This document shows, piece by piece, positions 8,536 to 28,028 of a stretch of DNA of 48,104 nucleotides; within the stretch, counting starts at the first letter, position 1, and each line of letters begins with the position of its first letter. A program made the position numbers and the translations under genes. The notes beneath the pieces are model-generated. The model was not told the DNA's origin and ran no database searches. It saw only the letters and a program-made list of their open reading frames with translations. Origin of the DNA: a virus; IMG/VR virus record IMGVR_UViG_3300025669_000055, positions 1 through 48,104 of that record. One strand, 5' to 3'.

Positions 8536-8570
8536 ATTGTTTTTTATTATTTTAATAATTTATTAAATGA

Positions 8571-8607
8571 GGTGTTCCGCCCACCAATAGTGATGAGCGG
8601 ATACCGC
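8571..8607 (-). promoter_or_regulatory. Intergenic hairpin pair between capsid-region genes
   Basis: The gap 8536-8613 holds two inverted repeats: GCGG-ATA-CCGC at 8597-8607 and GGTG-TTCCGCC-CACC at 8571-8585. They lie just after the stop codon of the 242-residue gene. There is no good U-run on the minus strand, so a plain intrinsic terminator is doubtful. An RNA-processing or transcript-end-protecting structure after the capsid genes is possible. Confidence 0.4.
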
Positions 8608-8613
8608 ATTTAA

Positions 8614-9342
8614 TTAGTCGGATGCAACATATTCGTCAACAGAAACAGTGATATCTGTATCTGTTTCACGAGTAAGTCGTAAATAGGCTTCGTTACCACC
8701 TTCGATAACAACATCACCATTCTCATTTTCAACTAAATCCATACCAGTTCCAGCAGCAATGGTTGTGCTAGAAGCTGAAGTAGGAGACACATTCCTAATT
8801 TTGAATGTAACATAGTCTCCAGCAGTTTGGATTAGAGTTGTGAAAGTAGAAGTGGCGGCTAACGTCAATGTATTAGCAGCGCTAGTCAAAGTATAATCAA
8901 GCTGATTATACGCGATTAACTGAGCTTCTGTTAATACACCAGTAGCGACATCGGTAGAACTAGCTAGAATTCCACCACCTTGGGTGAATCTACTAGCATC
9001 TAAGTCTCCAGTGGCGCTAATATCTCCAGTAATAGTAGCATCTCCTAAAACAAATAAATCATCGTTAACTTCAAGATCATCTACTAAAAGATCATTTAAA
9101 GCTGTCCATTCATCAGTATCAAGATTTGTTGGATTAGGATCACCTAGCGCGCCAAAGGCATCATCCCTTGAATCAGTTTTTATAGGTTGGCCATCAATAT
9201 TAATATTAATATTGATGTTAATACCATCTTTTTCAACTTCTTCAAAGGCTTGACCTCTAACTAAACTAGGTAAATAAAAGCAAAACGAAATAACCATTAT
9301 CCCTATAGAAGCGGCAAGAATTTGTTTACTATATTTTCGCAT
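8614..9342 (-). CDS. Membrane-anchored or exported fibre-like protein
   Basis: A 242-residue protein. It opens with MRKYSKQILA and a hydrophobic segment at about residues 8-28, which can act as a signal anchor or signal peptide. Next comes an alternating Ile-Asn run (ININININID) encoded by a perfect DNA palindrome. The remainder is fibre-like, with DLFVLGDATITGDISATGDL and the Thr/Ser-rich AATSTFTTL. It is the gene directly downstream of the major capsid protein. An N-terminal export signal directly after a capsid gene is unexpected; the protein could sit on the host surface or be anchored in the membrane during assembly. Confidence 0.6.
   Translation of the reverse strand: MRKYSKQILAASIGIMVISFCFYLPSLVRGQAFEEVEKDGININININIDGQPIKTDSRDDAFGALGDPNPTNLDTDEWTALNDLLVDDLEVNDDLFVLGDATITGDISATGDLDASRFTQGGGILASSTDVATGVLTEAQLIAYNQLDYTLTSAANTLTLAATSTFTTLIQTAGDYVTFKIRNVSPTSASSTTIAAGTGMDLVENENGDVVIEGGNEAYLRLTRETDTDITVSVDEYVASD
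9193..9216. repeat. Perfect 24-bp palindrome inside a coding region
   Basis: The 24 bases here read identically on both strands: ATCAATATTAAT followed by its own reverse complement. They lie inside the 242-residue gene and encode alternating Ile and Asn residues just after its hydrophobic N-terminus. In mRNA the site can form a hairpin near the 5' end of the coding region. Confidence 0.85.
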
Positions 9343-17295: not shown

Positions 17296-17324
17296 TTGAC
17301 TTTTGCTTGTTTTCGTTCTATAAT
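17296..17324 (+). promoter_or_regulatory. Rightward promoter, near-consensus
   Basis: TTGACT, 17-bp spacer, TATAAT. It points towards the early genes. No gene starts until 17728, so the transcript would have a leader of about 400 nt that passes through the (TA)10 tract and an operator copy. Confidence 0.7.
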
Positions 17325-17727: not shown

Positions 17728-17871
17728 ATGACCTATAATATTACATATAAAATACCAAAATATAGACACGCTAGACAATCCTCCCAAACACTACGAAATT
17801 TATCCAAAAATGACCTCTCGGATTGGATTGCATGGATAAACTATAAAAGGGGAACTTACACCATATTTTAA
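17728..17871 (+). CDS. First small early protein, 47 residues
   Basis: A short reading frame beginning MTYNITYKIPKYRHARQSSQ, basic in its first half and aromatic near the end (DWIAWINYKRGTYTIF). It is the first gene after the early promoter at 17599. The start ATG follows an A/T-rich leader (TATAAATATG), the genome's usual start context. A perfect palindrome AACTTATAAGTT sits 12 bp upstream. No family recognised. Short length makes the call uncertain. Confidence 0.5.
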   Translation: MTYNITYKIPKYRHARQSSQTLRNLSKNDLSDWIAWINYKRGTYTIF

Positions 17872-17896
17872 CTCCATTTCAGGAGATTTAAAACCG

Positions 17897-17934
17897 GCGG
17901 GCAGAAGTGGGGTATAAACTCCCCACTCACCCGC
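17897..17934 (+). promoter_or_regulatory. Intergenic hairpin, GCGGG family, copy 1
   Basis: Helices GCGGG/CCCGC and AGTGGGG/CCCCACT stack around a short loop. There is no U-run after it, so it is not a plain terminator. The outer sequence (GGCGGGCAG on the left, CCCGCATATA on the right) is shared with the hairpin at 18126-18166. Confidence 0.65.
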
Positions 17935-17959
17935 ATATAATAAAATAACATTTAATCAA

Positions 17960-18118
17960 ATGACAAAAAGTTATCAAATCAAAACTTATTTAATTGACTG
18001 CGTGGGTTATTCAGATGAGGATTTAAAAGGAGCTAATACAGACGAATTAGTCGAATTAGTCGAAAATGAAAAGGAATGCGCTGAATATTTAGAGGTGCCA
18101 ATGTCTTATTTAAAATAA
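17960..18118 (+). CDS. Small early protein, 52 residues
   Basis: Starts MTKSYQIKTYLIDCVGYSDE and is acidic in its second half (ANTDELVELVENEKECAEYL). It looks like a small alpha-beta domain; no family recognised. The ATG follows the repeated leader type TTTAATCAAATG. It is flanked on both sides by hairpins of the same family, so it behaves as a cassette. Confidence 0.6.
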   Translation: MTKSYQIKTYLIDCVGYSDEDLKGANTDELVELVENEKECAEYLEVPMSYLK

Positions 18119-18125
18119 ATAAATG

Positions 18126-18166
18126 GCGGGCAGTGAATAGATAACGACTTACTTATTCACTCCCGC
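18126..18166 (+). promoter_or_regulatory. Intergenic hairpin, GCGGG family, copy 2
   Basis: Helices GCGGG/CCCGC and AGTGAATA/TATTCACT enclose a 14-nt loop. Only the outer parts match the copy at 17897-17934; the inner stem has changed on both sides while pairing is kept, which is covariation-like evidence for selection on structure. Confidence 0.7.
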
Positions 18167-18177
18167 ATATATATATT

Positions 18178-18294
18178 ATGAGTACAATTCAAAAACAAAA
18201 CCAAATCAAATCATTTTACAAATTAAATAAACTAACTGCCCTGATACTGCTATTACTAGCCGGCGCGGTGGTGGTAATAAATTTATGGAGTTAA
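18178..18294 (+). CDS. Small single-pass membrane protein, 38 residues
   Basis: Starts MSTIQKQNQIKSFYKLNKLT and continues with a hydrophobic helix ALILLLLAGAVVVINLW, giving one transmembrane segment at about residues 21-37 with a basic cytoplasmic N-terminus. It overlaps the next gene by 10 bp. Small phage membrane proteins of this kind act in exclusion or lysis timing, but function is unknown. Confidence 0.6.
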   Translation: MSTIQKQNQIKSFYKLNKLTALILLLLAGAVVVINLWS

Positions 18295-18464
18295 CAAAAG
18301 AACAACACGCTAACAATGTAAAAAGTTTAATGTTAAACAAGACAGACGCGGTATATAATGCAATTTTAAGAGGTGATGACCCGCGCGACTGTAAAGAATT
18401 TCAACTTTATTTAAAGAAAACAAACGATTATTTGAATAAACATCAATTAATCAAAACCGATTAA
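18285..18464 (+). CDS. Small early protein, 59 residues
   Basis: Starts MELTKEQHANNVKSLMLNKT and is predicted all-helical and soluble. Its start overlaps the 3' end of the membrane-protein gene by 10 bp, so the pair is likely translated together. No family recognised. Confidence 0.6.
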   Translation: MELTKEQHANNVKSLMLNKTDAVYNAILRGDDPRDCKEFQLYLKKTNDYLNKHQLIKTD

Positions 18465-18516
18465 ACCCTAACACGGAGCAGTCCCAGACAATAAGCGACT
18501 GCTCAAGTTAGAGTTT
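18463..18516 (+). promoter_or_regulatory. Long two-tier intergenic hairpin
   Basis: Outer arms AAACCCTAAC and GTTAGAGTTT (one mismatch) and inner perfect arms GAGCAGTC and GACTGCTC form a long stem over a 13-nt loop. It begins at the stop codon of the 59-residue gene. No U-run follows. The left flank CCCTAAC resembles the flank of the hairpins at 19407 and 20475. Confidence 0.65.
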
Positions 18517-18581
18517 AACTAATAATGCGAGCGTCGGCAGTACTCACATAAGTGAACAAACACCAGACCGCAAACAATTAA

Positions 18582-18980
18582 ATGACAAAAGAAAAAAAGT
18601 ATTTTATCGCTGATTTTTACACATCACCCGAGGAAATACAACAAAGAAAAGACCAAATTGATAGACAAATGGCAAGCGTGCTAAAAACAATCAAACAAGG
18701 CAAAATTTATGCCACAGTTACAAGTGTTAGCCGTTCGGGTATGTCAAGGCGAATTCTATTTTTTAGAGTTACCAAGGGCAGCATAGAACGAATAACACCC
18801 CAAATCGCGTGGTTATACGGAGCAGTTACACCTGGGAAATATAACCAAGGCGGAAAAGAACTAATTGAAGATGGTTTACAAGTTAGCGGTTGTGGTATGG
18901 ATATGATTTTTCATACTCTATACAATTGTATGCCGAACAAGCAAGCAAGCAAATGGCGTCAAAATTATAAAACCTTATAA
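18582..18980 (+). CDS. Conserved phage hypothetical protein (RSGMSR type)
   Basis: A 132-residue protein. The pair of motifs VSRSGMSRRILFF (about residues 48-60) and VSGCGMDMIFHTLYN (about 101-115) is one I recognise from uncharacterised small proteins in many phage and plasmid genomes; their function is not established. The protein is basic and probably cytoplasmic. It follows a 65-bp spacer with a small TCAC/GTGA hairpin after the long hairpin at 18463-18516. Confidence 0.7.
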   Translation: MTKEKKYFIADFYTSPEEIQQRKDQIDRQMASVLKTIKQGKIYATVTSVSRSGMSRRILFFRVTKGSIERITPQIAWLYGAVTPGKYNQGGKELIEDGLQVSGCGMDMIFHTLYNCMPNKQASKWRQNYKTL

Positions 18981-18995
18981 ATTAAATTTAAGTAT

Positions 18996-19178
18996 ATGTT
19001 ATTAGAAATTTTATTTACGGAGTTAAGACACGACAAAAACCTAAAATCTTTTTTAGGGGATATTGTTAAAAAAGTAAATGCAACAATAGAAATTAGGAAC
19101 GAAGAGGATAAAATTGTCATAACAGGTGGCAGTAAAGATATAAAAGACACCCTAACAATATTTTACCGTAACATCTAA
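18996..19178 (+). CDS. Small early protein, 60 residues
   Basis: Starts MLLEILFTELRHDKNLKSFL. A helix followed by a beta hairpin (ATIEIRNEEDKIVITGG) and a C-terminal helix suggests a small folded domain. No family recognised. It ends just before the structured element at 19180-19236. Confidence 0.55.
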   Translation: MLLEILFTELRHDKNLKSFLGDIVKKVNATIEIRNEEDKIVITGGSKDIKDTLTIFYRNI

Positions 19179-19179
19179 A

Positions 19180-19236
19180 TTAACCCCTCACCCCGTGGCT
19201 ATCACATAAAACTGGTAGCCACTAGCGAGTAGTTAA
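19180..19236 (+). promoter_or_regulatory. Structured intergenic element, three-tier stem
   Basis: TTAAC, CTC and GTGGCTA (19180-19201) pair with TAGCCAC, GAG and GTTAA (19216-19236). The element is followed by the same TTAATAAATTAAA leader as the elements at 19407 and 20475. No U-run. Confidence 0.65.
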
Positions 19237-19254
19237 TAAATTAAATATAATCAA

Positions 19255-19410
19255 ATGGCAAATGACATTGACTTATGGCGCGATATTGAAGATGTAGAGA
19301 AACTTATAAGGTGGTCTATAAGAGATAAGGATAAAATACTAGAGAAACTTTATAGAAAAGAGCATAAAAAATTAATGAGTAATTTTCAAGCTGTTTACAT
19401 TAATAGTTAA
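19255..19410 (+). CDS. Small early protein, 51 residues
   Basis: Starts MANDIDLWRDIEDVEKLIRW and is helical and charged throughout. The leader AAATATAATCAAATG is a near-copy of the one used by the genes at 19495 and 19700. Its stop codon lies inside the left arm of the next structured element. No family recognised. Confidence 0.6.
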   Translation: MANDIDLWRDIEDVEKLIRWSIRDKDKILEKLYRKEHKKLMSNFQAVYINS

Positions 19411-19476
19411 CCCCTAACCCTCAACCACAAAGGCGACAAGCCATTTCTGCCCTTGTGGTTCTGGGCTAGTGATTAA
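19407..19476 (+). promoter_or_regulatory. Structured RNA element with conserved loop, copy A
   Basis: AACCACAA(a)GG at 19423-19433 pairs with CCTTGTGGTT at 19451-19460. The loop has ACAAGCCATTTCT (19436-19448), identical to copy B at 20505-20517. Flanks TTAACCCCTAACCC and GGGCTAGTGATTAA can form an imperfect outer helix. The loop AGCCA can instead pair with TGGGCT downstream, a pseudoknot that excludes the outer helix. Confidence 0.7.
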
Positions 19477-19494
19477 TAAATTAAACATAATCAA

Positions 19495-19689
19495 ATGACT
19501 AATAAAACAGCTTTATGTGTTGCTTGCCTTGATGAATTTGAGCAAGACAGGGATTTGCAATTATGTGATAATTGCATAACTAAATATGATACCGACAAAA
19601 TATGGAAAGACCACGACGAAAACAAAATTGATATTCTTGATGTTAACGAGAATATTCAATTATTAAATGAGTATATGTTAAATAACTAA
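19495..19689 (+). CDS. Small zinc-ribbon protein
   Basis: A 64-residue protein with CVACLDEF and LCDNCI near residues 8-28, two CxxC knuckles typical of a zinc ribbon. The rest is acidic and helical. Small phage zinc-ribbon proteins often bind host RNA polymerase or nucleic acid; nothing here decides which. Leader AAACATAATCAAATG, no Shine-Dalgarno. Confidence 0.65.
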   Translation: MTNKTALCVACLDEFEQDRDLQLCDNCITKYDTDKIWKDHDENKIDILDVNENIQLLNEYMLNN

Positions 19690-19699
19690 ACATAATCAA

Positions 19700-19876
19700 A
19701 TGACTAAACAATCAATCAAAAAAAGACTTGCCTATTTAAGACAAGAGATTGAAGCCGAACGTATAAGCCAAGGCGAAATCCTTGAATTACAAGGCTTAGC
19801 CGAACACATAGACGCGGGCGACACTCTGCTTTTAGAGTGGGCTTTAGTCCCTGAGTTTAACGGATACTTAGATTAA
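19700..19876 (+). CDS. Small early protein, 58 residues
   Basis: Starts MTKQSIKKRLAYLRQEIEAE; a helical hairpin protein with a conserved-looking C-terminus (LLLEWALVPEFNGYLD). It starts 10 bp after the zinc-ribbon gene, using an exact copy of the same leader (AAACATAATCAAATG). The composition recalls short phage proteins of unknown role that contain an ERIS-type helix. No firm family. Confidence 0.65.
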   Translation: MTKQSIKKRLAYLRQEIEAERISQGEILELQGLAEHIDAGDTLLLEWALVPEFNGYLD

Positions 19877-19899
19877 TTTAATAAATTAAACATAAAACT

Positions 19900-20478
19900 A
19901 TGTCATCGACAAATCGTGGCTATGACCGCCATAAATCAGACTACTACATCACGCCCTTACAACCAATCAAGGAGTTTTTATCTGTATTTTTATTGGATGA
20001 AAATATAACGAGGCCAGACCGTTTAATTTGGCTTGACCCTTGCTCTGGTGGTGATAAAAATAATCCAATGAGTTACCCGACTGTTATTAAGGAAGAATTC
20101 GACCCGTTAATAATGACAATCGATATTCGGGAAGATAGTTTAGCTGAGTTAAAGGCTGATTATTTGCTAGAAGAAATCAAAGCGCCTAAGCCGGATATAA
20201 TTATAACTAATCCGCCTTTTCATCTAGCTAAGGAAATTATAACTAAGGCGCTGGATGATGTTGGCAATGGTAGATATGTGATTATGCTTTTACGGCTTAA
20301 TTTTTGGGGAAGTAAAGACCGCAATCAGTGGTTAAAGGATAATATGCCAAAGTATTGTTATATTCATGGCTTTCCTAGGATGTCTTTCACTAAAGACGGT
20401 GGCACTGACTCAATCGAGTATGCCCATTTTGTTTGGCAAAAGGGAACCAATAAAAATACAAAAATAATATTACTTTAA
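19900..20478 (+). CDS. DNA adenine methyltransferase-like protein
   Basis: A 192-residue protein with a SAM-binding-type motif LDPCSGGD at residues 45-52 and the catalytic motif TNPPF at 103-107, as in N6-adenine methyltransferases. It is shorter than most Dam-type enzymes and has no obvious target-recognition domain, so it may be a solitary, low-specificity enzyme. Phages use such enzymes to escape host restriction. There is no restriction endonuclease gene beside it. The gene ends inside the next structured element. Confidence 0.75.
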   Translation: MSSTNRGYDRHKSDYYITPLQPIKEFLSVFLLDENITRPDRLIWLDPCSGGDKNNPMSYPTVIKEEFDPLIMTIDIREDSLAELKADYLLEEIKAPKPDIIITNPPFHLAKEIITKALDDVGNGRYVIMLLRLNFWGSKDRNQWLKDNMPKYCYIHGFPRMSFTKDGGTDSIEYAHFVWQKGTNKNTKIILL

Positions 20479-20546
20479 CCCTTAACCCTCACCTAAGACG
20501 GCTAACAAGCCATTTCTACCGTCTTAGAGATGGGCTAGTGATTAAT
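20475..20546 (+). promoter_or_regulatory. Structured RNA element with conserved loop, copy B
   Basis: CTAAGACGG (20493-20501) pairs perfectly with CCGTCTTAG (20519-20527). The loop ACAAGCCATTTCT is identical to copy A although the stem sequence is wholly different. AGCCATTTCT in the loop can pair with AGAGATGGGCT just after the stem (one bulge), forming a long pseudoknot. Outer flanks TTAACCCTTAACCC and GGGCTAGTGATTAA match copy A. Confidence 0.75.
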
Positions 20547-20570
20547 AAATTGCCCGCACATTTAAAATTT

Positions 20571-20786
20571 ATGGATAAATTATTTATTATTGAATATTGC
20601 GATCAAGGCACTTCCTGGTATTGGGCAAAAAATAAAGAGGAAGCTAAAAAGCAAGCCTTAGAAACAGATGAAGCCACAGAATATGCCTTAGAAGAAGCAG
20701 AAATCTGGTGCATAGATGAAGCCATAAACAAACAAGAACTAAAAGAACGCCTTGACAGGTACATTAATAAACCATTAAATAAATAA
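20571..20786 (+). CDS. Hypothetical early protein, 71 residues
   Basis: Starts MDKLFIIEYCDQGTSWYWAK and then has alternating charged helices (KKQALETDEATEYALEEAEI). I chose the ATG at 20571 because it follows AAAATTT and matches the genome's start context; the in-frame GTG at 20538 lies inside the conserved right flank of the structured element. It resembles small DUF-type phage proteins but no family is certain. It ends shortly before a rightward terminator. Confidence 0.6.
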   Translation: MDKLFIIEYCDQGTSWYWAKNKEEAKKQALETDEATEYALEEAEIWCIDEAINKQELKERLDRYINKPLNK

Positions 20787-20808
20787 TAACAACACTCTTT
20801 TATTACTC

Positions 20809-20824
20809 CCACGCGTAAGCGTGG
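20809..20824 (+). promoter_or_regulatory. Hairpin CCACGC-GTAA-GCGTGG
   Basis: Perfect 6-bp stem with a GTAA (GNRA-type) tetraloop, just before the terminator at 20833-20885. Probably a 3' end stabiliser or protein-binding hairpin. Confidence 0.6.
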
Positions 20825-20832
20825 CACTACTA

Positions 20833-20885
20833 AAACACTGTTAACTTTACTTTAAGCGGGCAAGTAAAGCAGACAGTGTTTTTTT
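20833..20885 (+). terminator. Rightward intrinsic terminator
   Basis: AAACACTGT (20833-20841) pairs with ACAGTGTTT (20873-20881); inside it CTTTACTT pairs with AAGTAAAG. A T-run follows (20879-20885). This ends the first early transcript unit, in contrast to the other early hairpins that lack U-runs. Confidence 0.85.
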
Positions 20886-20942
20886 ATTAAAAAATAACTC
20901 ATTGAAATAAAAACAAAAATAAAAAATTAACAATTAAACAAA

Positions 20943-21521
20943 ATGAAAAAACTTACAAAAATGCTATTTTCAAGCATTATCAAACAAAGTAAAAACGATT
21001 TGCCGTTTACAGCAAGAGAAGGGCAAATGGTTAAATGGTTTATAAAATTCCAAATCCTTACACTGGTTATTATATCAGCATGGATTTATCCATTAATCAC
21101 GCTAAATAGCCACATAACAAGCTACAATCAATTAATTAAGGAGAATGTAAGCTTGCGGACTAAAAACAGCGTGGCGACCACCAAGAGAAGGATTTTAACA
21201 CCAGAAATTCCGGGAATACAGGTAAAAAGCGTCAAAAAAACTCCTGATCAAGTAAAAGATGAAATTCAGTTAATTGCGGAGGAACATAACTTTCCCTGGA
21301 TAGATTATCTTTTGCGGTTAGCCGGGTGTGAAAGTGAATTTAATTCAGAGGTGAGAGGTAAAATAGATAAAAGAGATAGAGGTGTTTTTCAGATTAATTC
21401 TTATTGGCATAGTGAAGTGTCAGACGAATGCGCGTTTAACGTCCGGTGTGCGACAGAGTGGACTATGTGGAGAATTGAGAGCGGACACCAAAACGAATGG
21501 ATTTGTGACAAATTAATTTAA
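20943..21521 (+). CDS. Membrane-anchored lysozyme/transglycosylase-like protein
   Basis: A 192-residue protein with a transmembrane segment at about residues 33-55 and a C-terminal lysozyme-like domain. The motif LAGCESEFN contains a candidate catalytic Glu130, and DRGVFQINSYWH (about 144-155) is the Gln-Ile-Asn signature of SLT/goose-type folds. It would cut peptidoglycan from the outer face of the membrane. It is encoded in the early arm, away from the holin-like genes near 45 kb, which is odd for an endolysin; a signal-anchor lysin or an entry-related or cell-wall-modifying enzyme is possible. Confidence 0.75.
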   Translation: MKKLTKMLFSSIIKQSKNDLPFTAREGQMVKWFIKFQILTLVIISAWIYPLITLNSHITSYNQLIKENVSLRTKNSVATTKRRILTPEIPGIQVKSVKKTPDQVKDEIQLIAEEHNFPWIDYLLRLAGCESEFNSEVRGKIDKRDRGVFQINSYWHSEVSDECAFNVRCATEWTMWRIESGHQNEWICDKLI

Positions 21522-21534
21522 TAATAATAAAACC

Positions 21535-21798
21535 ATGCTTATCAAAACAGAATTAACCCGGGCCGCGATAGATCACATCTTATTATGGGCCACAGGTTAT
21601 CGAAACAAATTTAGATGGACAAAACATGACACTAATTTAACAAACGTGCTTCACTTAATAAAGAAGCAAGTTGGTCGCAGGGCTTACAATAAGCAAAAAA
21701 TTAAAGAGTTAATAGGTGATGATGTATCAAAAGAAAAACTACAGGAAATAATAAAAATAGTAGATGAGGCACCAATAACATTGCGATTAAAGAAATAG
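21535..21798 (+). CDS. Hypothetical early protein, 87 residues
   Basis: Starts MLIKTELTRAAIDHILLWAT, basic and helical. It lies 13 bp after the lysozyme-like gene and ends just before the helicase control region. No family recognised. The ATG follows AATAATAAAACC. Confidence 0.55.
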   Translation: MLIKTELTRAAIDHILLWATGYRNKFRWTKHDTNLTNVLHLIKKQVGRRAYNKQKIKELIGDDVSKEKLQEIIKIVDEAPITLRLKK

Positions 21799-21818
21799 TT
21801 ATTAAGGTTCCTCACAGC

Positions 21819-21827
21819 TTATCCACA
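21819..21827 (+). promoter_or_regulatory. DnaA box
   Basis: TTATCCACA, a perfect DnaA box in the 330-bp gap before the replicative helicase. Confidence 0.6.
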
Positions 21828-21911
21828 TTAAAAAATCAAGATCTTTACAAAAAAAACTAAACTATAATTTGTAAACTGTAGTTTGTTAAATGTTAGCACT
21901 TTTTTATAGTA

Positions 21912-21940
21912 TTGCATTTTTAAAAGCTGTAAGCTATACT
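21912..21940 (+). promoter_or_regulatory. Promoter for the replication genes
   Basis: TTGCAT, 17-bp spacer, TATACT, with TAAGC before the -10. Its transcript would begin with a leader of about 180 nt that contains the 117-nt hairpin at 21992-22108. Confidence 0.65.
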
Positions 21941-21991
21941 TTAATTAAGTTAATCCTCTATATGTTTGTCAACAGAGTTTAATAACTCACC

Positions 21992-22108
21992 CCTATTAAA
22001 AAACCGGATAATATCAGTTAGACATTCATGCCTTTATATTACTAAGCCTTATATAAAAGCACGACAAACTATGGATTTCAGCTGATTTTTATCCGGTTTT
22101 TTAATAGG
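21992..22108 (+). promoter_or_regulatory. Large hairpin in the helicase leader
   Basis: A perfect 20-bp inverted repeat: CCTATTAAAAAACCGGATAA at 21992-22011 and its complement at 22089-22108. Inside, ATCAG/CTGAT extends the stem, and TTTATAT/ATATAAA forms a further helix. It ends 20 bp before the helicase ATG. It could be a replication origin structure or a leader that controls helicase expression. Confidence 0.8.
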
Positions 22109-22128
22109 AGTGCGCTAATTAATATTTT

Positions 22129-23697
22129 ATGCTAACGAATGCACTCGTCCAAGGGGCGACTAAAAATAGTATTTTAATTGCTAATTATATGATAGAGCAA
22201 GCCACAATTGACGGTAAACACTTCGCCTATAGCGAGAAAGAAAAAATGCTTTACTGTTATGATGGTAAGATTTATATACCATTCGAAGGGATCGATCTTG
22301 ATCAGTTTTTCCACGATTTTATGGTTCAATACAACGCCACCGAAATGTGGAAATCGTCAAGACTTGCAGAATTTGAGCGAGCAATTAAAGTAAATAAATT
22401 AGTCCCTCGAGTAGAGATGGACGATTACAATGATCAGATTTGTTTTAAGAACGGAGTGCTAGACATGAAGACAATGGAATTTAAAAATCATAGTAGTTCA
22501 CTATATTTCTCAACATTTGTAGATGTAGATTACGACCCGAAAGTAGGTTCCGAACCAGTAGCATTTTTAACCACAATGGAAAAAATCTTTTTCAATACTA
22601 AAACCGGAAAACCAGACTATGACACAATCGATCTTATAAAATGTATAGGTGGCTCCCTCATCTTTCCTAAAAATAAATTAAAACAATTGTTTATTTTCTT
22701 AGGTGGTGGTTCGAATGGTAAATCTGTAATAATGAATACATTTGCGATGTTTTTTTCAACCGACCACACCACTTATTTATCTCTCGAGGAGCTGTCAACT
22801 AAAAACAAAGAAAGGTCACGGTTGCTAAAGTCTCGTATCAATTTTTGTTCAGAGGAAAAAGGTGGAACTATTAATTCAGAAGAAATCAAACGGATTGTTT
22901 ATGGCGAGGGTATAACAATTGGACGGATGTATAAAGAGGCGGTTGAATTTATCCCTAAGACTAAAATTGTTGTGGCCGCTAATTCAAAACCATATTTTAA
23001 AGATACTAGTTATGGATTAGAGCGACGACTTACAATCGTAAACTTCGACAATTTATTTCTGCAAACTGCTAAGTTTAAAAAAACTAAAGACGCGGAGAAG
23101 CAAGGTATATTTTTAGCAGAAGATGATGATGATTTAATGGCTAAAATAAGAAAAGAACGTACACAAATTTTAAACTTTTTCCTAAAAGGATTGAAAATAT
23201 TAGTAGATCGTAAATGGGAAATGCCTGAAAGTGTTGCTGTTAAAGAGGCTAAAGAAGAATATATTGAGGGTAATGACACAGTTGGAACTTGGTTGAAAGA
23301 TAATTATGAAGTTGATGTTAGTGGAGAATCAAAGATATTAGCCTCTGATATTCTAGTAAACTACAGGACTTGGTACCAGGATAATGTAAGCACTCGATCA
23401 TTAAACTTTGCAGTTAATACAATGGGTACAAGAATTAATGAAATTTTCAGATTAAAGCCAATCCGTAAAGCAGTAAATGGTAAGAGATTGGCGCATTATA
23501 CATTAATGAAAAAAATATATGTTACTGACGACGATACAACAGAAGAGCCAGGAGATGGAAGTGAGCTACCGGTGGGCGATCTTGTGCAGGGCTCGTTATC
23601 TATACCAGAAAATCAAGGAGAGCCTACCACCAAGAGAAGTGAATCGGGAGAAGGAAATCAAGAGGTTGAGGAGAATAGCCAAGAAAGAACTCAGTAA
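22129..23697 (+). CDS. Superfamily 3 replicative helicase (P4/D5-type)
   Basis: A 522-residue protein that would unwind DNA at the phage origin. It has the SF3 Walker A FLGGGSNGKS at residues 190-199, a Walker B-like FCSEE near 239-243, and the sensor motif KIVVAANSKPYF at about 279-290 followed by LERRLTIVNF. The N-terminal 130 residues match the D5_N-type region that precedes the ATPase in P4 primase-helicases, but no primase catalytic domain is fused. The C-terminal 50 residues are acidic and low-complexity, and their DNA also encodes the start of the next gene in another frame. Confidence 0.88.
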   Translation: MLTNALVQGATKNSILIANYMIEQATIDGKHFAYSEKEKMLYCYDGKIYIPFEGIDLDQFFHDFMVQYNATEMWKSSRLAEFERAIKVNKLVPRVEMDDYNDQICFKNGVLDMKTMEFKNHSSSLYFSTFVDVDYDPKVGSEPVAFLTTMEKIFFNTKTGKPDYDTIDLIKCIGGSLIFPKNKLKQLFIFLGGGSNGKSVIMNTFAMFFSTDHTTYLSLEELSTKNKERSRLLKSRINFCSEEKGGTINSEEIKRIVYGEGITIGRMYKEAVEFIPKTKIVVAANSKPYFKDTSYGLERRLTIVNFDNLFLQTAKFKKTKDAEKQGIFLAEDDDDLMAKIRKERTQILNFFLKGLKILVDRKWEMPESVAVKEAKEEYIEGNDTVGTWLKDNYEVDVSGESKILASDILVNYRTWYQDNVSTRSLNFAVNTMGTRINEIFRLKPIRKAVNGKRLAHYTLMKKIYVTDDDTTEEPGDGSELPVGDLVQGSLSIPENQGEPTTKRSESGEGNQEVEENSQERTQ

Positions 23698-24133
23698 GTG
23701 GCAACATTTACGCCTAGAAGCTGATACAAAAGACCTGTGGTTTATAGATGATCAAACATTGATATGGTTGGAAAGGTTTAATAAATGTGAGAAGACACTA
23801 GCTTATTATAGACGGCTTAAAAAAGCTGATAAAGACGAAAAAGAGGGTAAAGTAGTTACCAGACCGGTTGAATATGATATTGAGAGGCTGAAAGAGACAC
23901 CAATTGTAGATATAGTTAAGCATTATGGCTTCAACGTTAAAATGTCCGGTGTCGGGCGTGGGTACATTAAATTAAGGCAAGAGAAAACCGCCTCATGTTG
24001 CTTAACAGTTGATAAAAATACATTTCACGACTTTGGATCCGGTGAACACGGCGACGTAATCGATTTCGTAGCCAAACAAGAAAACTGTGGATTTCAAGAG
24101 GCATGTAAAAGATTAACATTAATGGGATATTGA
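23519..24133 (+). CDS. Primase-like protein with degenerate CHC2 zinc finger
   Basis: A 204-residue protein. The C-terminal 75 residues look like a DnaG-type CHC2 zinc-binding domain: FHDFGSGEHGDVIDFVAKQ then FQEACKRL, but the cysteines and histidine that bind zinc are mostly lost. The N-terminal part is basic and helical. The ORF starts 179 bp inside the helicase gene in a different frame; the ATG follows AAAAAAATATATG, this genome's typical start leader. A later start is possible. It probably supplies DNA recognition to the helicase as a separate subunit. Confidence 0.65.
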   Translation: MLLTTIQQKSQEMEVSYRWAILCRARYLYQKIKESLPPREVNREKEIKRLRRIAKKELSKWQHLRLEADTKDLWFIDDQTLIWLERFNKCEKTLAYYRRLKKADKDEKEGKVVTRPVEYDIERLKETPIVDIVKHYGFNVKMSGVGRGYIKLRQEKTASCCLTVDKNTFHDFGSGEHGDVIDFVAKQENCGFQEACKRLTLMGY

Positions 24134-24134
24134 T

Positions 24135-24254
24135 ATGACTAAAGAAAAAGGTGTAATTCTGATAATATTTATAGTTTGTATATACTTTGGATTAAAATAC
24201 GACAGTCATTTAGCAACTATTGGAGCATTAATATCGTTATTATTATTAATATAA
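24135..24254 (+). CDS. Small hydrophobic membrane protein, 39 residues
   Basis: Starts MTKEKGVILIIFIVCIYFGL. Two hydrophobic stretches separated by KYDSH (about residues 21-25) suggest a helical hairpin in the membrane. The ATG overlaps the stop of the primase-like gene (ATTGATATG). Small membrane proteins among replication genes may tether replication to the membrane or act in exclusion; unknown. Confidence 0.55.
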   Translation: MTKEKGVILIIFIVCIYFGLKYDSHLATIGALISLLLLI

Positions 24255-24260
24255 AATTTT

Positions 24261-24959
24261 ATGCAAGTAATTTTATTCGACACAGAAACAACAGGTCTAA
24301 AAAACCCTCGACTGGTCCAACTAGCTTGGAAGTCAGAGAATAAGGACGTTAATCAAATGTTTTTTAAACCACCAGTACCAATTGAATTTGGTGCAATGGC
24401 TGTTCATCATATTACTAACGAAGACGTAGAAAAAGCCCCAATATTTGATGATGAGTTAAGGAAATTTTGGCAAAAAAAACTTAAAGATGTTGTTGCCGTT
24501 GCTCACAATCTACCGTTTGATGTTGGTGTTATGAGAAACGAAGGCGTGATAATTAATGGTGGAATATGTACCTTAAAAGTTGCTCGGTTTTTATTTCCAA
24601 ATGAAGAACAACACAAAATGCAATACTTGAGATATAGTTTAAAGTTAAAAGTAGATCGTGAAGCCGTCGCGCATGATGCCAAGGGCGACGTAATGGTTTT
24701 AGACGCTTTATTTAATAAGCTCTATGTAGTAATAGCGGAAAGGATGAGTTCACCTACTTTTGATGATATAATTGAAGAAATGATTAAAATCACCGGACAA
24801 CCATCAATCCTAAATAAAATTAGTTTTGGTAAGCACCGCGGAAAAACAATTAAAGAAATTATAGCCACAGATTCTAGTTATATTGATTGGCTGCTTAAAC
24901 AACCAACACTTGATAATGATTTAAAATATTCAATTAATTATCATAAAAAAAATGCGTGA
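24261..24959 (+). CDS. DnaQ-like DEDDh exonuclease
   Basis: A 232-residue 3'-5' exonuclease. ExoI motif FDTET has Asp7 and Glu9; ExoII HNLPFD has Asp87; ExoIIIepsilon AHDAKGD has His138 and Asp143. After about residue 185 a second small domain appears (ISFGKHRGKTIKEI and YIDWLLKQ), a short module I know from the C-terminus of several phage and bacterial exonucleases. It would proofread or degrade DNA during replication. No DNA polymerase is encoded in this window, so host polymerase is probably used. It overlaps the next gene by 8 bp. Confidence 0.88.
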   Translation: MQVILFDTETTGLKNPRLVQLAWKSENKDVNQMFFKPPVPIEFGAMAVHHITNEDVEKAPIFDDELRKFWQKKLKDVVAVAHNLPFDVGVMRNEGVIINGGICTLKVARFLFPNEEQHKMQYLRYSLKLKVDREAVAHDAKGDVMVLDALFNKLYVVIAERMSSPTFDDIIEEMIKITGQPSILNKISFGKHRGKTIKEIIATDSSYIDWLLKQPTLDNDLKYSINYHKKNA

Positions 24960-25326
24960 TTTATTTAGAACAGAAGGATTGAAAATATCCTATATAAAGG
25001 AATACATTGACCGGCGTAACCATCTTATAGGATTGGTAATAATAGCTTTATTTATTTTTGCAGCAGTATTTTTATGCTCAAACCTTCTAGTATTAAGAGG
25101 AAAAGTTCTTGAGCGATCAGAGAAAGAATGTGTAAGCGCAAGCGCTATTAGTAGCTGGGAGAACAGTCTAAACATCGCTAACCAAATCTGTGTCGAATCT
25201 CAAGGAAATTATATTTTAGATCTCAAAACTAATTATGATGCTCAAATAGGTAATCTTGAATCAGATGTCAAATATTGGAAGGACGCGTATATGTGGTTAA
25301 AATTTCAAAATAAAGAAGAAGAATAA
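24952..25326 (+). CDS. Single-pass membrane protein with coiled-coil tail
   Basis: A 124-residue protein: basic N-terminus, transmembrane helix at about residues 24-48 (NHLIGLVIIALFIFAAVFLC), then an extracytoplasmic helical region with two cysteines. The topology is like an Rz-type inner-membrane spanin, but its place next to the exonuclease and far from the holin-like genes argues against it. No family recognised. Confidence 0.55.
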   Translation: MRDLFRTEGLKISYIKEYIDRRNHLIGLVIIALFIFAAVFLCSNLLVLRGKVLERSEKECVSASAISSWENSLNIANQICVESQGNYILDLKTNYDAQIGNLESDVKYWKDAYMWLKFQNKEEE

Positions 25327-25346
25327 CATTAATTATAAATAAATAT

Positions 25347-25484
25347 ATGGATAAATATTTTTGGATTTGTCCAAACTGTAATACATGGAATAGGAAGGTA
25401 ACTGCGACTGAAACACAGGCAACAAATTTTACTGGTGCTGAATGTGAACATTGTGATTATAGACCAGATAATTATACATATTAA
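25347..25484 (+). CDS. Small zinc-ribbon protein, 45 residues
   Basis: Starts MDKYFWICPNCNTW and ends CEHCDYRPDNYTY: two CxxC knuckles about 22 residues apart, a minimal zinc ribbon. The ATG follows AAATAAATAT. Probably a nucleic-acid- or RNA-polymerase-binding protein. Confidence 0.65.
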   Translation: MDKYFWICPNCNTWNRKVTATETQATNFTGAECEHCDYRPDNYTY

Positions 25485-25499
25485 AAAAGGAAACAAAAA

Positions 25500-25622
25500 T
25501 TGAAGAAATGTGAAAACTGTGCCAGAAGAATCTGGCTAGTAACAAAATGGGGCTGTACTGTCTATCGAATACAGGTATTTAAAAAGAACCCTGTATTATG
25601 CAGGGAACACAAAAAAGCTTAG
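25500..25622 (+). CDS. Small Cys-rich protein with TTG start, 40 residues
   Basis: Reads (M)KKCENCARRIWLVTKWGCT then LCREHKKA. CxxC and a later C-x2-H could bind zinc. The likely start is TTG at 25500, because AAGGA lies 8 nt upstream, one of the few Shine-Dalgarno sequences in the early arm. No ATG is in a suitable place. The stop overlaps the left arm of a hairpin. Confidence 0.5.
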   Translation: MKKCENCARRIWLVTKWGCTVYRIQVFKKNPVLCREHKKA

Positions 25623-25644
25623 GGGAGGGCTTTAATTCTCCCCT
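25621..25644 (+). promoter_or_regulatory. Intergenic hairpin AGGGGAG/CTCCCCT
   Basis: Perfect 7-bp arms with a 10-nt loop between two early genes. No U-run follows. Confidence 0.6.
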
Positions 25645-25659
25645 ATCTAAATTAAAATT

Positions 25660-26106
25660 ATGAAAATTTATAAAACACAAAAAGAAGTAGAAAAAGACAT
25701 TAAAAATGGAGTGTTAGCTATCGAGGGAGATGTTAAATTTGAATGTTCAATTTACATCAGTGCTTCAATTAAGGTAACCGCTGGGGACATTAACGCTTTG
25801 GACATTAACGCTTGGAACATTAACGCTTGGAACATTAACGCTGGGAACATTGACGCTTGGAACATTAACGCTGGGAACATTGACGCTGGGAACATTGACG
25901 CTAGGAACATTTTATATTACGCCTTTTGTGGAGTGTATGATTCTATCAGATGTTTATCTATTAAAGCTAAAAGAGAATCTCACAGCGAGCCAGTTTGTCT
26001 TGATGGTAAATTAGAAATAAAAGACGAAGAAGAAAAAGTAACTATTAAAATATCTAAGAAATCCTTAGAAGCTTTAAAAGAAAGTGGTATAGAGATAATT
26101 GAATAG
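25660..26106 (+). CDS. Pentapeptide-repeat protein
   Basis: A 148-residue protein with an N-terminal 40-residue part, eight tandem five-residue units of the form (N/D)I(N/D)A(W/G) at about residues 43-82, and a C-terminal beta-rich domain (CLDGKLEIKDEEEKVTIKIS). Pentapeptide repeats fold as a right-handed beta-helix; some mimic DNA (MfpA, Qnr). The repeat DNA is nearly perfect 15-bp units, so copy number probably changes fast. I know similar proteins in phages and bacteria, without a proven function. It is followed by a large structured RNA candidate. Confidence 0.7.
   Translation: MKIYKTQKEVEKDIKNGVLAIEGDVKFECSIYISASIKVTAGDINALDINAWNINAWNINAGNIDAWNINAGNIDAGNIDARNILYYAFCGVYDSIRCLSIKAKRESHSEPVCLDGKLEIKDEEEKVTIKISKKSLEALKESGIEIIE
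25786..25905. repeat. Eight tandem 15-bp units
   Basis: Eight copies of AACATTAACGCTTGG-type units, differing at only a few positions (AAC/GAC at the start, TTAAC/TTGAC, TTGG/TGGG). They encode the pentapeptide repeats of the surrounding gene. Confidence 0.9.
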
Positions 26107-26121
26107 GTTGCCAGAGTCGAT

Positions 26122-26149
26122 GCTAGGTGAGACTTAAAATAATCCTAGC
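26122..26149 (+). promoter_or_regulatory. Hairpin GCTAGG/CCTAGC
   Basis: Perfect 6-bp arms (26122-26127 and 26144-26149) just upstream of the large structured element at 26156-26321; probably part of the same RNA. Confidence 0.55.
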
Positions 26150-26155
26150 TACAAC

Positions 26156-26321
26156 TTTGTTTATTACATTCTAGTAATATTGAGGACAGCGTAAAATGTT
26201 GCTGTTGCGGGAGGTGGATTGGTTGCGTCTCCCTAAGACTTACATCGGCTTAAAGTCCGTGGCGAATCCTCTAACCAAGAGTTTGAACCCTAAAGGATAT
26301 TACTAGAATGTAGTAAACAAA
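26156..26321 (+). ncRNA. Large structured RNA candidate closed by a 25-bp stem
   Basis: The 25 bases 26156-26180 are complementary to 26297-26321 with a single G-U pair. The 116-nt interior can form ACAGC/GCTGT (26186-26205), GGGAG/CTCCC (26209-26233), GACTT/AAGTC (26237-26257) and CTCT/AGAG near 26270-26281. TTGGTT in the loop of the GGGAG hairpin can pair with AACCAA (26273-26278), a pseudoknot. No tRNA cloverleaf or known class is recognisable to me. It lies in a 246-bp gap between two early genes. A small inverted-repeat mobile element is the alternative, but I see no clear target duplication. Confidence 0.65.
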
Positions 26322-26352
26322 CCCCTACTAAATAATTATTAATATAAAAGAG

Positions 26353-26553
26353 ATGAAAAAACATCTATGGACACTTATATATACCGACACAGATAGGGTT
26401 AGGGCTGCTTCTTTTAATATAACTGGTGTTAATAGTAGTTTTATTCCTGTGTTTTTTACCAGAAGAGATGCTGTTACTTTTTATAAAAAGTCTTTTAAAG
26501 AAGTTGAGACTACCTTGAAAATAACTAAGATAACCTTGTTAGAAACTAAATAA
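26353..26553 (+). CDS. Hypothetical early protein, 66 residues
   Basis: Starts MKKHLWTLIYTDTDRVRAAS. A small alpha-beta protein with alternating beta strands (LWTLIYTD, FIPVFFTR, TLKITKITLLE). Possibly paired with the structured RNA just upstream, since it is the next gene downstream. No family recognised. AAAGAG lies just before the ATG and is a weak Shine-Dalgarno. Confidence 0.55.
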   Translation: MKKHLWTLIYTDTDRVRAASFNITGVNSSFIPVFFTRRDAVTFYKKSFKEVETTLKITKITLLETK

Positions 26554-26615
26554 CCCTAAGCACTACTAATATGAATAAACTAACCCATGACTAATTAATA
26601 TAATAAATAACAAAA

Positions 26616-26987
26616 ATGAAAAAAGTAATTTTCACAATCTGCATCGCCTTTCTATTGTTTGGTGGTGTAGCAAGTGCGGCAACATTGCCTATCGGAGACC
26701 TATCTGGTTTCTTTGTAATGATTCCAAGAATCAGTACTTATAATTATTACATGTCTCAAGACGGTAATGATGTATCAATGAACTTTCTAACAAACTTCAA
26801 GACTGAAGGACATGTTATGATTGTTGATACGGACACAGGTATTGATCAAATGTATTACGAAGGAGCTGAAAGTGTTTTTCACACAATGAGCATTACACTA
26901 CCATCAGGTAATTATGAAATGTTTGCAGTAACCGAGGGAAGACACGGGCTATTAACAGGTGATGTTATTCCATTCACTATTGATTAG
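26616..26987 (+). CDS. Secreted protein of the early arm
   Basis: A 123-residue protein with a clear Sec signal peptide: MKKVIFTICIAFLLFGGVASA, cleavage expected after ASA at about residue 21. The mature part is beta-rich and acidic (FKTEGHVMIVDTDTG, ITLPSGNYEMFAVTEG), and looks like an immunoglobulin-like sandwich. An early exported phage protein may change the cell surface, for example superinfection exclusion. It is followed by a strong hairpin, a DnaA box and a promoter, so it ends a transcription unit. Confidence 0.65.
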   Translation: MKKVIFTICIAFLLFGGVASAATLPIGDLSGFFVMIPRISTYNYYMSQDGNDVSMNFLTNFKTEGHVMIVDTDTGIDQMYYEGAESVFHTMSITLPSGNYEMFAVTEGRHGLLTGDVIPFTID

Positions 26988-26994
26988 TGTATGT

Positions 26995-27018
26995 CTGCCC
27001 CTGTTTTTCTGGGGGCAG
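26995..27018 (+). promoter_or_regulatory. Intergenic hairpin CTGCCCC/GGGGCAG
   Basis: Perfect 7-bp GC-rich stem with a T-rich loop, just after the secreted-protein gene. No U-run follows, so terminator activity is uncertain. Confidence 0.6.
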
Positions 27019-27038
27019 GAATATGCCAAGCAACAAAC

Positions 27039-27047
27039 TGTGGATAA
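27039..27047 (-). promoter_or_regulatory. DnaA box
   Basis: TGTGGATAA, the fourth perfect DnaA box in the window, about 50 bp upstream of the regulator promoter. Confidence 0.55.
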
Positions 27048-27096
27048 CTAAACTATAGTACAGAAAGTGTCTAAAATTACACTATTTATAAGGGTC

Positions 27097-27125
27097 TTGT
27101 ATAATTTTAGTTAGTATGCTACAAT
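27097..27125 (+). promoter_or_regulatory. Promoter for the regulator and recombination genes
   Basis: TTGTAT, 17-bp spacer, TACAAT, with TATGC before the -10, like the promoter at 17599. An inverted repeat AGTGT/ACACT (27066-27083) lies just upstream and may be an operator. Confidence 0.6.
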
Positions 27126-27161
27126 AAAAAAAAAGGAAATTTAAATAATTAATAAATAAGT

Positions 27162-27392
27162 ATGCTTTTAGCAGAAATCAAAAAATTGAATAAAAACATC
27201 AAGTTAGAGGATGTGGCACAATTATCAGGCTTGTCAGCAGTTCGTCTTTATGAAATTAATAAACGTCCAGAACAAAAGACTTTGAAATTAATGACGATGG
27301 AACGAATTTACAGTGCTACGTATAAACTATGTGGGGCTGGATTAACACCGGATAAATATTTAATTGGAGTCGTATTACCGTTTAAAAAATAA
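27162..27392 (+). CDS. Helix-turn-helix regulator (XRE/Cro-like)
   Basis: A 76-residue protein. The segment KLEDVAQLSGLSAVRLYEIN (about residues 16-35) fits an XRE-type helix-turn-helix with the recognition helix at SAVRLYEIN. The C-terminal part (LCGAGLTPDKYLIGVVLPF) is short, as in Cro-type proteins. It is the first gene after the promoter at 27097 and is a good candidate to bind the palindromic operators near 17 kb or the AGTGT/ACACT repeat in its own promoter. Confidence 0.7.
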   Translation: MLLAEIKKLNKNIKLEDVAQLSGLSAVRLYEINKRPEQKTLKLMTMERIYSATYKLCGAGLTPDKYLIGVVLPFKK

Positions 27393-27403
27393 TATAAAAT
27401 TTT

Positions 27404-27874
27404 ATGAGTGAAGAACAACAAGATGGTGAAAAATGGGAAGAGGTTAGCTCTGACTTAGGACGCACTATCCGTTGGCGAGAAGTCGCTAAAGATGATAAAG
27501 AAGCTGAAAAGACTATCTTTATCGGGACCGAAGTTGTCGGTATTTATACCGAGAAGAGAGAAAATATTGGCGAAAATAGCGCCACTATTTATCAAGTTAA
27601 TACAATTGAGCATGGTATGTTGAATATCTGGTCAACCACAGTATTAGCTGATAAGATGAAGAGAATTTTCGAAGGCAACGAAGTACGAATCACAATGAAA
27701 GGCGAACAGAAGCCTAAAGCCGGTGGTAAAGCTTATATGCTTTTCGACGTTTTCCAACGTCCGCCATCAGCAGAATTAGTTGCTCAGTTAGGAGTTGAAA
27801 AAAAGGAAGAAGAAAAAGAGGAAGAAAAAGAGGAGGAATCAACTGATGAAGAGGTAGATCCTAAATTTGATTAA
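27404..27874 (+). CDS. Single-stranded DNA-binding-like protein
   Basis: A 156-residue protein. Residues about 35-115 look like an OB-fold: KTIFIGTEVVGIYTEKRENI, then a strand-helix-strand section ending EVRITMKGEQKPKAGGKAYM and LFDVFQ. The C-terminal 30 residues are strongly acidic (Glu-rich), ending DPKFD, as in SSB-type proteins that recruit partners through an acidic tail. It lies directly upstream of the recombination genes. It might alternatively be an annealing-type protein cofactor. Confidence 0.65.
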   Translation: MSEEQQDGEKWEEVSSDLGRTIRWREVAKDDKEAEKTIFIGTEVVGIYTEKRENIGENSATIYQVNTIEHGMLNIWSTTVLADKMKRIFEGNEVRITMKGEQKPKAGGKAYMLFDVFQRPPSAELVAQLGVEKKEEEKEEEKEEESTDEEVDPKFD

Positions 27875-27891
27875 GTTTTCCTTAATGAATT

Positions 27892-27931
27892 GTTACCCTC
27901 TCCTTAGTTTCTAGCACTAGGGAGGGGTAAC
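27892..27931 (+). promoter_or_regulatory. Long intergenic hairpin after the SSB-like gene
   Basis: Arms beginning GTTACCC and ending GGGTAAC pair over about 15 bp with two G-U pairs and a 9-10-nt loop. No U-run follows. A second long hairpin follows at 27947-28010. Confidence 0.65.
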
Positions 27932-27946
27932 ATATATTGTTTATTG

Positions 27947-28010
27947 AAGCGGGTAGGCGGAAAATTATTGGTGTGTGTACGGGCATGTATACGCATTTAC
28001 CTGCCCGCTT
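27947..28010 (+). promoter_or_regulatory. Second long intergenic hairpin
   Basis: AAGCGGG and AGG (27947-27957) pair with CCT and CCCGCTT (28000-28010). The 42-nt interior has a further GTGTAC/GTATAC helix. It ends 18 bp before the next ATG; stem GCGGG/CCCGC is shared with the hairpins at 17897 and 18126. Confidence 0.65.
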
Positions 28011-28028
28011 TAATAAATAATCTCTTAT

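What the first reader, a model, noticed from the sequence alone, without database searches (positions are those of the whole stretch)
17897..28010. Almost every early intergenic gap contains a strong hairpin without a U-run
Hairpins occur at 17897, 18126, 18463, 19180, 19407, 20475, 20809, 21992, 25621, 26122/26156, 26995, 27892 and 27947, with unrelated stem sequences. Only one (20833-20885) is a normal terminator. The pattern suggests a general rule of early mRNA organisation, such as RNase processing sites, stabilisers, or translational insulation for leaderless-like starts.
Basis: seen in the sequence. Interest (0 to 1): 0.75.

Follow-up and report, generated by a model that had tools for sequence, protein, structure and literature searches.

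The report
Paralogous hairpins between phage early genes
An unclassified phage separates many of its small early genes with RNA-type hairpins that are real, partly copies of one another and kept paired despite sequence change; they most resemble the mRNA-processing hairpins of phage T7, so this is a new variant of something known rather than a new kind of system.

Summary
The hairpins are real: 14 of 15 sites tested beat dinucleotide shuffles at p<=0.012 (only 26122 fails), and 12 of the 13 early gaps of at least 37 nt hold one. Three parts of the claim need correcting. (1) The rule concerns long gaps only; 20 of 33 early junctions are too short for a hairpin, and a late gap (8536-8613) also has one. 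(2) The stems are not all unrelated. 19407 and 20475 are 79% identical copies; 18461, 19180 and the outer arms of 21978 share their ends; 17896 and 18126 form a second pair. In the copies, loop and outer arms are constant while the inner stem changed on both sides and still pairs, so pairing is under selection. (3) Other phages also carry gap hairpins (T7 8 of 18 gaps, lambda 9 of 18, here 8 of 13). The hairpins do not make start codons more accessible, which weakens 'insulation'. The phage has almost no Shine-Dalgarno sites and a start-associated TTAATAAAT motif that often abuts the hairpin's 3' base. Most likely they punctuate a long early mRNA like T7 RNase III sites (processing or exonuclease barriers). 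Function is unproven; no informative relatives exist in the collections searched.

The parts
17896..17935 (+). Hairpin, class 2 (GGCGGGCAG ... CCCGCATAT ends), between ORFs 17728-17871 and 17960-18118
   Evidence: p 0.000; shares ends with 18126, inner stem differs but pairs
18126..18168 (+). Hairpin, class 2, second copy
   Evidence: p 0.002
18461..18520 (+). Hairpin D, class 1 (outer stem starts TTAA at the stop codon)
   Evidence: z -6.9; shares 5' arm TTAAACCCTAAC (D4)
19180..19236 (+). Hairpin C, class 1
   Evidence: z -6.3
19407..19475 (+). Hairpin A, class 1; outer stem includes the upstream stop codon TAA
   Evidence: 79% identical to B over 77 nt; covariation
20475..20545 (+). Hairpin B, class 1; copy of A with a rewritten inner stem
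20805..20825 (+). Small hairpin CCACGC-GTAA-GCGTGG just before the terminator
   Evidence: p 0.004
20832..20885 (+). Ordinary terminator-like hairpin with T run
   Evidence: sequence
21978..22122 (+). Long inverted repeat (34-nt arms, 85% complementary, 77 nt apart) 6 nt before the primase start; outer arm similar to class 1
25620..25645 (+). Short GC hairpin at a stop codon
   Evidence: p 0.012; borderline in the gap test
26156..26321 (+). Long inverted repeat (25-nt arms, 96% complementary) closing a GC-richer 116-nt folded core; candidate non-coding RNA
   Evidence: no Rfam match
26991..27023 (+). Short GC hairpin right after a stop codon
   Evidence: p 0.000
27889..27935 (+). Hairpin GTTACCCTCTCC...GGGAGGGGTAAC
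   Evidence: p 0.000
27936..28021 (+). Very stable long hairpin (22 consecutive pairs plus inner stem), 7 nt before the ORF 28029 start; folds far better as the mRNA strand
   Evidence: dG -42.9 sense against -21.0 antisense; strand bias z -5.3
8563..8614 (-). Same kind of hairpin in a late gap (TTAAATG...CATTTAA, then TAATAAATTA leader)
   Evidence: z -7.5 to -8.3
19473..19481 (+). Example of the start-associated motif TTAATAAAT that abuts hairpin 3' bases (also 19233, 19878, 20542, 27149, 28010; minus strand 7833, 8558, 12065)
   Evidence: 9 of 11 genome copies lie within 45 nt upstream of starts; 9 of 57 genes against 0.5 expected

Best explanation
The early region is probably read as one long plus-strand mRNA (basis: same-strand ORFs, near-consensus sigma70 promoters at 17296 and 17599, no excess of promoter-like sites in the gaps; no transcript data). 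Selected RNA hairpins sit between cistrons, often hugging the upstream stop codon and mostly ending 6-31 nt before an A/T-rich, Shine-Dalgarno-less start (shown from sequence). Several are duplicated copies that keep outer arms and loop but rewrite the inner stem with paired changes (shown). The inferred step is that they punctuate the mRNA: a double-strand endonuclease (host RNase III type) cuts the longer ones, or the stems block 3'-to-5' exonucleases, so cistrons get their own ends and stability, as in T7 early mRNA.
For: Excess over shuffles. Copies A and B: differences are 1/16 and 0/15 in the outer arms and 2/15 in the loop, but 5/12 and 8/13 in the two inner arms, with both inner stems at -15.2 kcal/mol against -3.7 and -7.7 when arms are swapped; three pairs changed on both sides. 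Class 2 shows the same, and chance matches to its end pattern in 29 other contigs lack an inner stem. 27936-28021 folds twice as well on the mRNA strand. T7's early intercistronic hairpins, seen in the same test, also have a common base (AAGGTC...GGCCTT) and a variable tip, no T run, and similar size and energy; [quoted passage not shown]
Against: No transcript data, no known host, no relative with a different sequence. The left cluster (17.9-22.1 kb) folds slightly better as the minus strand, although base composition explains that except for A and B. Stems vary from 10 to more than 50 pairs; the shortest (25620, 26991, 17896) are short for a classical RNase III substrate. Presence of RNase III in the host was not tested.
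Confidence: 0.5

Rival explanations
1. A mixed bag: the gaps exist because each holds some independent element (terminator, replication origin, ncRNA, operator, stop-proximal stabiliser), and no common function unites them.
For: At least four anatomical classes; 26156-26321 looks like a separate structured RNA; 21978-22122 sits in an AT-rich gap beside the primase; lambda and T7 also have hairpins in many gaps.
Against: Five sites share class 1 arms and two share class 2 ends, and several end in the same leader motif.
Confidence: 0.25
2. Start-associated regulatory cassettes of the SAS/ESAS type: the TTAATAAAT leader motif plus an upstream inverted repeat bound by a phage or host factor to control translation or transcription of selected genes.
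For: TTAATAAAT is strongly tied to starts and occurs with and without an adjacent hairpin, like SAS with and without ESAS (PMC3203893). The conserved loop ACAAGCCATTTCT in A and B could be a binding site.
Against: ESAS arms have a shared consensus within a genome; here the inner stems differ. Accessibility of starts is not improved by the hairpin.
Confidence: 0.13
3. Recombination or module-shuffling cassettes like PeSLs of T4-type phages, or another DNA-level hairpin.
For: A and B are copies in unrelated gene contexts (no clear ORF paralogy); A and B fold better as minus strand beyond composition.
Against: No promoter-like excess in the region (66 found, 66.4 expected), so the promoter part of a PeSL is absent; no integrase or transposase seen among the ORFs scanned; single phage, no shuffled relatives.
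Confidence: 0.08
4. Transcription terminators lacking a U run.
For: Stop-proximal GC hairpins at 25620, 26991 and 27889 have that shape.
Against: The phage has a normal U-run terminator (20832-20885), and no strong promoter match follows most hairpins, so termination would silence the downstream genes.
Confidence: 0.04

Closest known systems
RNase III processing sites of phage T7 early mRNA
   Same: Hairpins without U run in the early intergenic gaps of a long mRNA; copies with a common lower stem and variable tip; similar length and energy.
   Different: T7 uses Shine-Dalgarno starts and has promoters in some of these gaps; no cleavage is known here; several hairpins here are much shorter or much longer.
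Extended start-associated sequences (ESAS) and SAS of cluster K mycobacteriophages (PMC3203893)
   Same: Short motif just before many start codons, about half of them with an inverted repeat directly upstream.
   Different: Different motif (TTAATAAAT here, GGGATAGGAGCCC there); the inverted-repeat arms share no genome-wide consensus here.
Promoter early stem-loops (PeSLs) of T4-type phages
   Same: Repeated stem-loops in early gaps.
   Different: No promoter is paired with most of the hairpins here. The original papers were not readable here; described through PMC4503421.

Membership tests
T7-type RNase III processing sites | Intercistronic hairpin without U run in the early same-strand gene block | tested here: met
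T7-type RNase III processing sites | Paralogous sites with a common base and variable tip | tested here: met
   Class 1 and 2 copies against T7 sites
T7-type RNase III processing sites | Cut by RNase III in infected cells | not testable with these tools
   no transcript data; host unknown
SAS/ESAS | Short motif tied to start codons | tested here: met
   TTAATAAAT, 9 of 57 genes against 0.5 expected, though it is a different motif
SAS/ESAS | 17-bp inverted repeat with genome-wide consensus arms | tested here: not met
   inner stems differ; only short outer arms are shared by subsets
PeSL | Early promoter joined to the stem-loop | tested here: not met
   promoter-like sites no more than chance, none of the strong ones in the hairpin gaps of 17.97-20.6 kb on the plus strand
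Intrinsic terminators | U run after the stem | tested here: not met
   only 20832-20885 qualifies fully; hairpins without T run dominate
Integron attC sites | RYYYAAC / GTTRRRY end boxes | tested here: not met
   3' arms of A and B (GGGCTAGTGATTAA) contain no GTT (read from the sequence)
Known Rfam RNA family | Covariance model match above gathering score | tested here: not met

The most novel reading that the evidence does not exclude
A phage of a host that initiates without Shine-Dalgarno sequences has evolved a set of duplicated, mutually non-pairing intercistronic hairpins (constant outer arms and loop, diverged inner stems) that together with a start-associated TTAATAAAT leader form a modular punctuation code for a polycistronic mRNA.
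Probability: 0.15. Interest if true: 0.65.

Novelty: new variant of a known kind. Interest (0 to 1): 0.38.

Why it matters
It would show that phages of Shine-Dalgarno-poor hosts punctuate early mRNA with hairpins as T7 does, and that such hairpins spread by duplication inside a genome while their stems diverge under pairing constraint, giving a covariation signal from a single genome. It also gives a start-associated motif that can be tested as an initiation signal.

Tried and rejected
Strand preference: the left cluster seemed to fold better as minus strand (A.C 21, G.T 10) and the right as plus strand (6, 19), Fisher p 0.0014, which hinted at lagging-strand or antisense function; base composition explains it (p 0.58 and 0.15) except for A, B and 27936-28021. 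Insulation of starts: no effect. Relatives: protein and DNA scans of viral contigs, genome contigs and phage records gave only an identical 25,949-base contig (IMGVR 3300023435_000084) or remote proteins below 60% identity. L005 and L006 (terminase 21-22% identical) were not informative for intergenic elements. Class 2 pattern matches elsewhere are chance, without inner stems. Automatic four-way structural alignment of class 1 failed because inner stems differ in length; the MAFFT alignment of T7 sites was likewise poor and their common base was read from the folded sequences. attC and known Rfam families rejected.

Full report
The window is a 48,104-base virus record: terminase and structural genes on the minus strand (left and right parts) and replication genes (D5-type primase/helicase, primase zinc finger, exonuclease, recombination ATPase, helicase, DNA methyltransferase) on the plus strand (17.7-32.7 kb). 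The only close relative found is an identical contig.

Check of the observation. All listed hairpins exist. In windows around the sites 14 of 15 beat 500 dinucleotide shuffles at p<=0.012; 26122 does not. In the gap test without chosen windows 8 of 13 early gaps of 37-400 nt have p<=0.02; whole-gap folding gives 10 of 13 at p<=0.025. Twenty of 33 early junctions are too short to hold a hairpin, so the rule is that almost every long early gap contains one. The late gap 8536-8613 holds an equally clear hairpin. The same test finds hairpins in 16-50% of gaps in six other phages, so the excess here is real but is a matter of degree.

Anatomy. Class 1 (18461, 19180, 19407, 20475; outer arms also at 21978) starts with TTAA, at or next to the upstream stop codon in the first four, has a 5' arm like TTAACCCYTMACCC and ends in TTAA, in three of them followed by TAAAT. 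Class 2 (17896, 18126) has GGCGGGCAG...CCCGCATATA ends. Class 3 comprises long inverted repeats at 21978-22122, 26156-26321 and 27936-28021. Class 4 comprises short GC hairpins at 25620, 26991 and 27889. Thus the stems are not all unrelated.

Evidence for selected pairing. A (19407) and B (20475) are 79% identical over 77 nt. Their differences concentrate in the inner arms (5/12 and 8/13) while loop and outer arms are nearly constant, yet both inner stems have the same stability (-15.2 kcal/mol) and arms pair poorly when swapped; RNAalifold on the pair counts three both-sided changes. Class 2 shows three more. Occurrences of the class 2 end pattern in 29 other contigs, about the number expected by chance by my estimate, carry no significant inner stem.

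Context. Only 4 of 60 starts have a Shine-Dalgarno-like motif. Leaders are A/T rich, and TTAATAAAT lies within 45 nt upstream of 9 of 57 starts (0.5 expected); 9 of its 11 genome copies are there. The three best promoter matches are in the divergent region (17296 and 17599 plus; 17143 minus), and promoter-like sites overall equal the chance number. This fits one long early mRNA with internal punctuation; it is inference, not a transcript map.

Function. [quoted passage not shown] In the same analysis the T7 hairpins share a base and vary at the tip, as class 1 and 2 do. Insulation of start codons was tested by partition-function folding and not supported. A DNA-level or minus-strand role was suggested by mismatch asymmetry but is mostly explained by composition. 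The element at 27936-28021 clearly favours the mRNA strand (dG -42.9 against -21.0). My preferred reading is therefore mRNA processing or end protection, confidence 0.5, with a mixed bag of elements as the main rival.

Comparison. SAS/ESAS of cluster K mycobacteriophages (PMC3203893) are similar in layout, but the shared arm consensus is missing. PeSLs of T4-type phages need a promoter, which is missing. Rfam has no match. The finding is a new variant of a known kind, of moderate interest.

Noticed in passing
26156-26321: 166-nt element with 25-nt nearly perfect terminal inverted repeat and a GC-richer folded core, no Rfam match; candidate ncRNA or miniature mobile element.
   Followed up: partly
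25764-25915 within ORF 25660-26106: Tandem 15-nt repeat encoding five-residue repeats (xNIxA), a pentapeptide-like repeat protein.
   Followed up: no
17143 (-), 17296 (+), 17599 (+): Three near-consensus sigma70 promoters (11 of 12) in the divergent region although the phage hardly uses Shine-Dalgarno sites; argues against a Bacteroidota host with its own promoter type.
   Followed up: partly
19900-20478: DNA methyltransferase up to 59% identical to Clostridioides difficile phage proteins, far closer than the other genes examined are to known phages; possible recent transfer.
   Followed up: no
17-32 kb: GC skew on the same coding strand rises from about 0.03 (17-21 kb) to about 0.18 (22-28 kb), stepping near the long inverted repeat at 21978-22122; possible replication origin beside the primase.
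   Followed up: partly
19405-19480 and 20473-20549, minus strand: Hairpins A and B fold better as minus strand than composition predicts (z 2.6 and 2.8); unexplained.
   Followed up: partly
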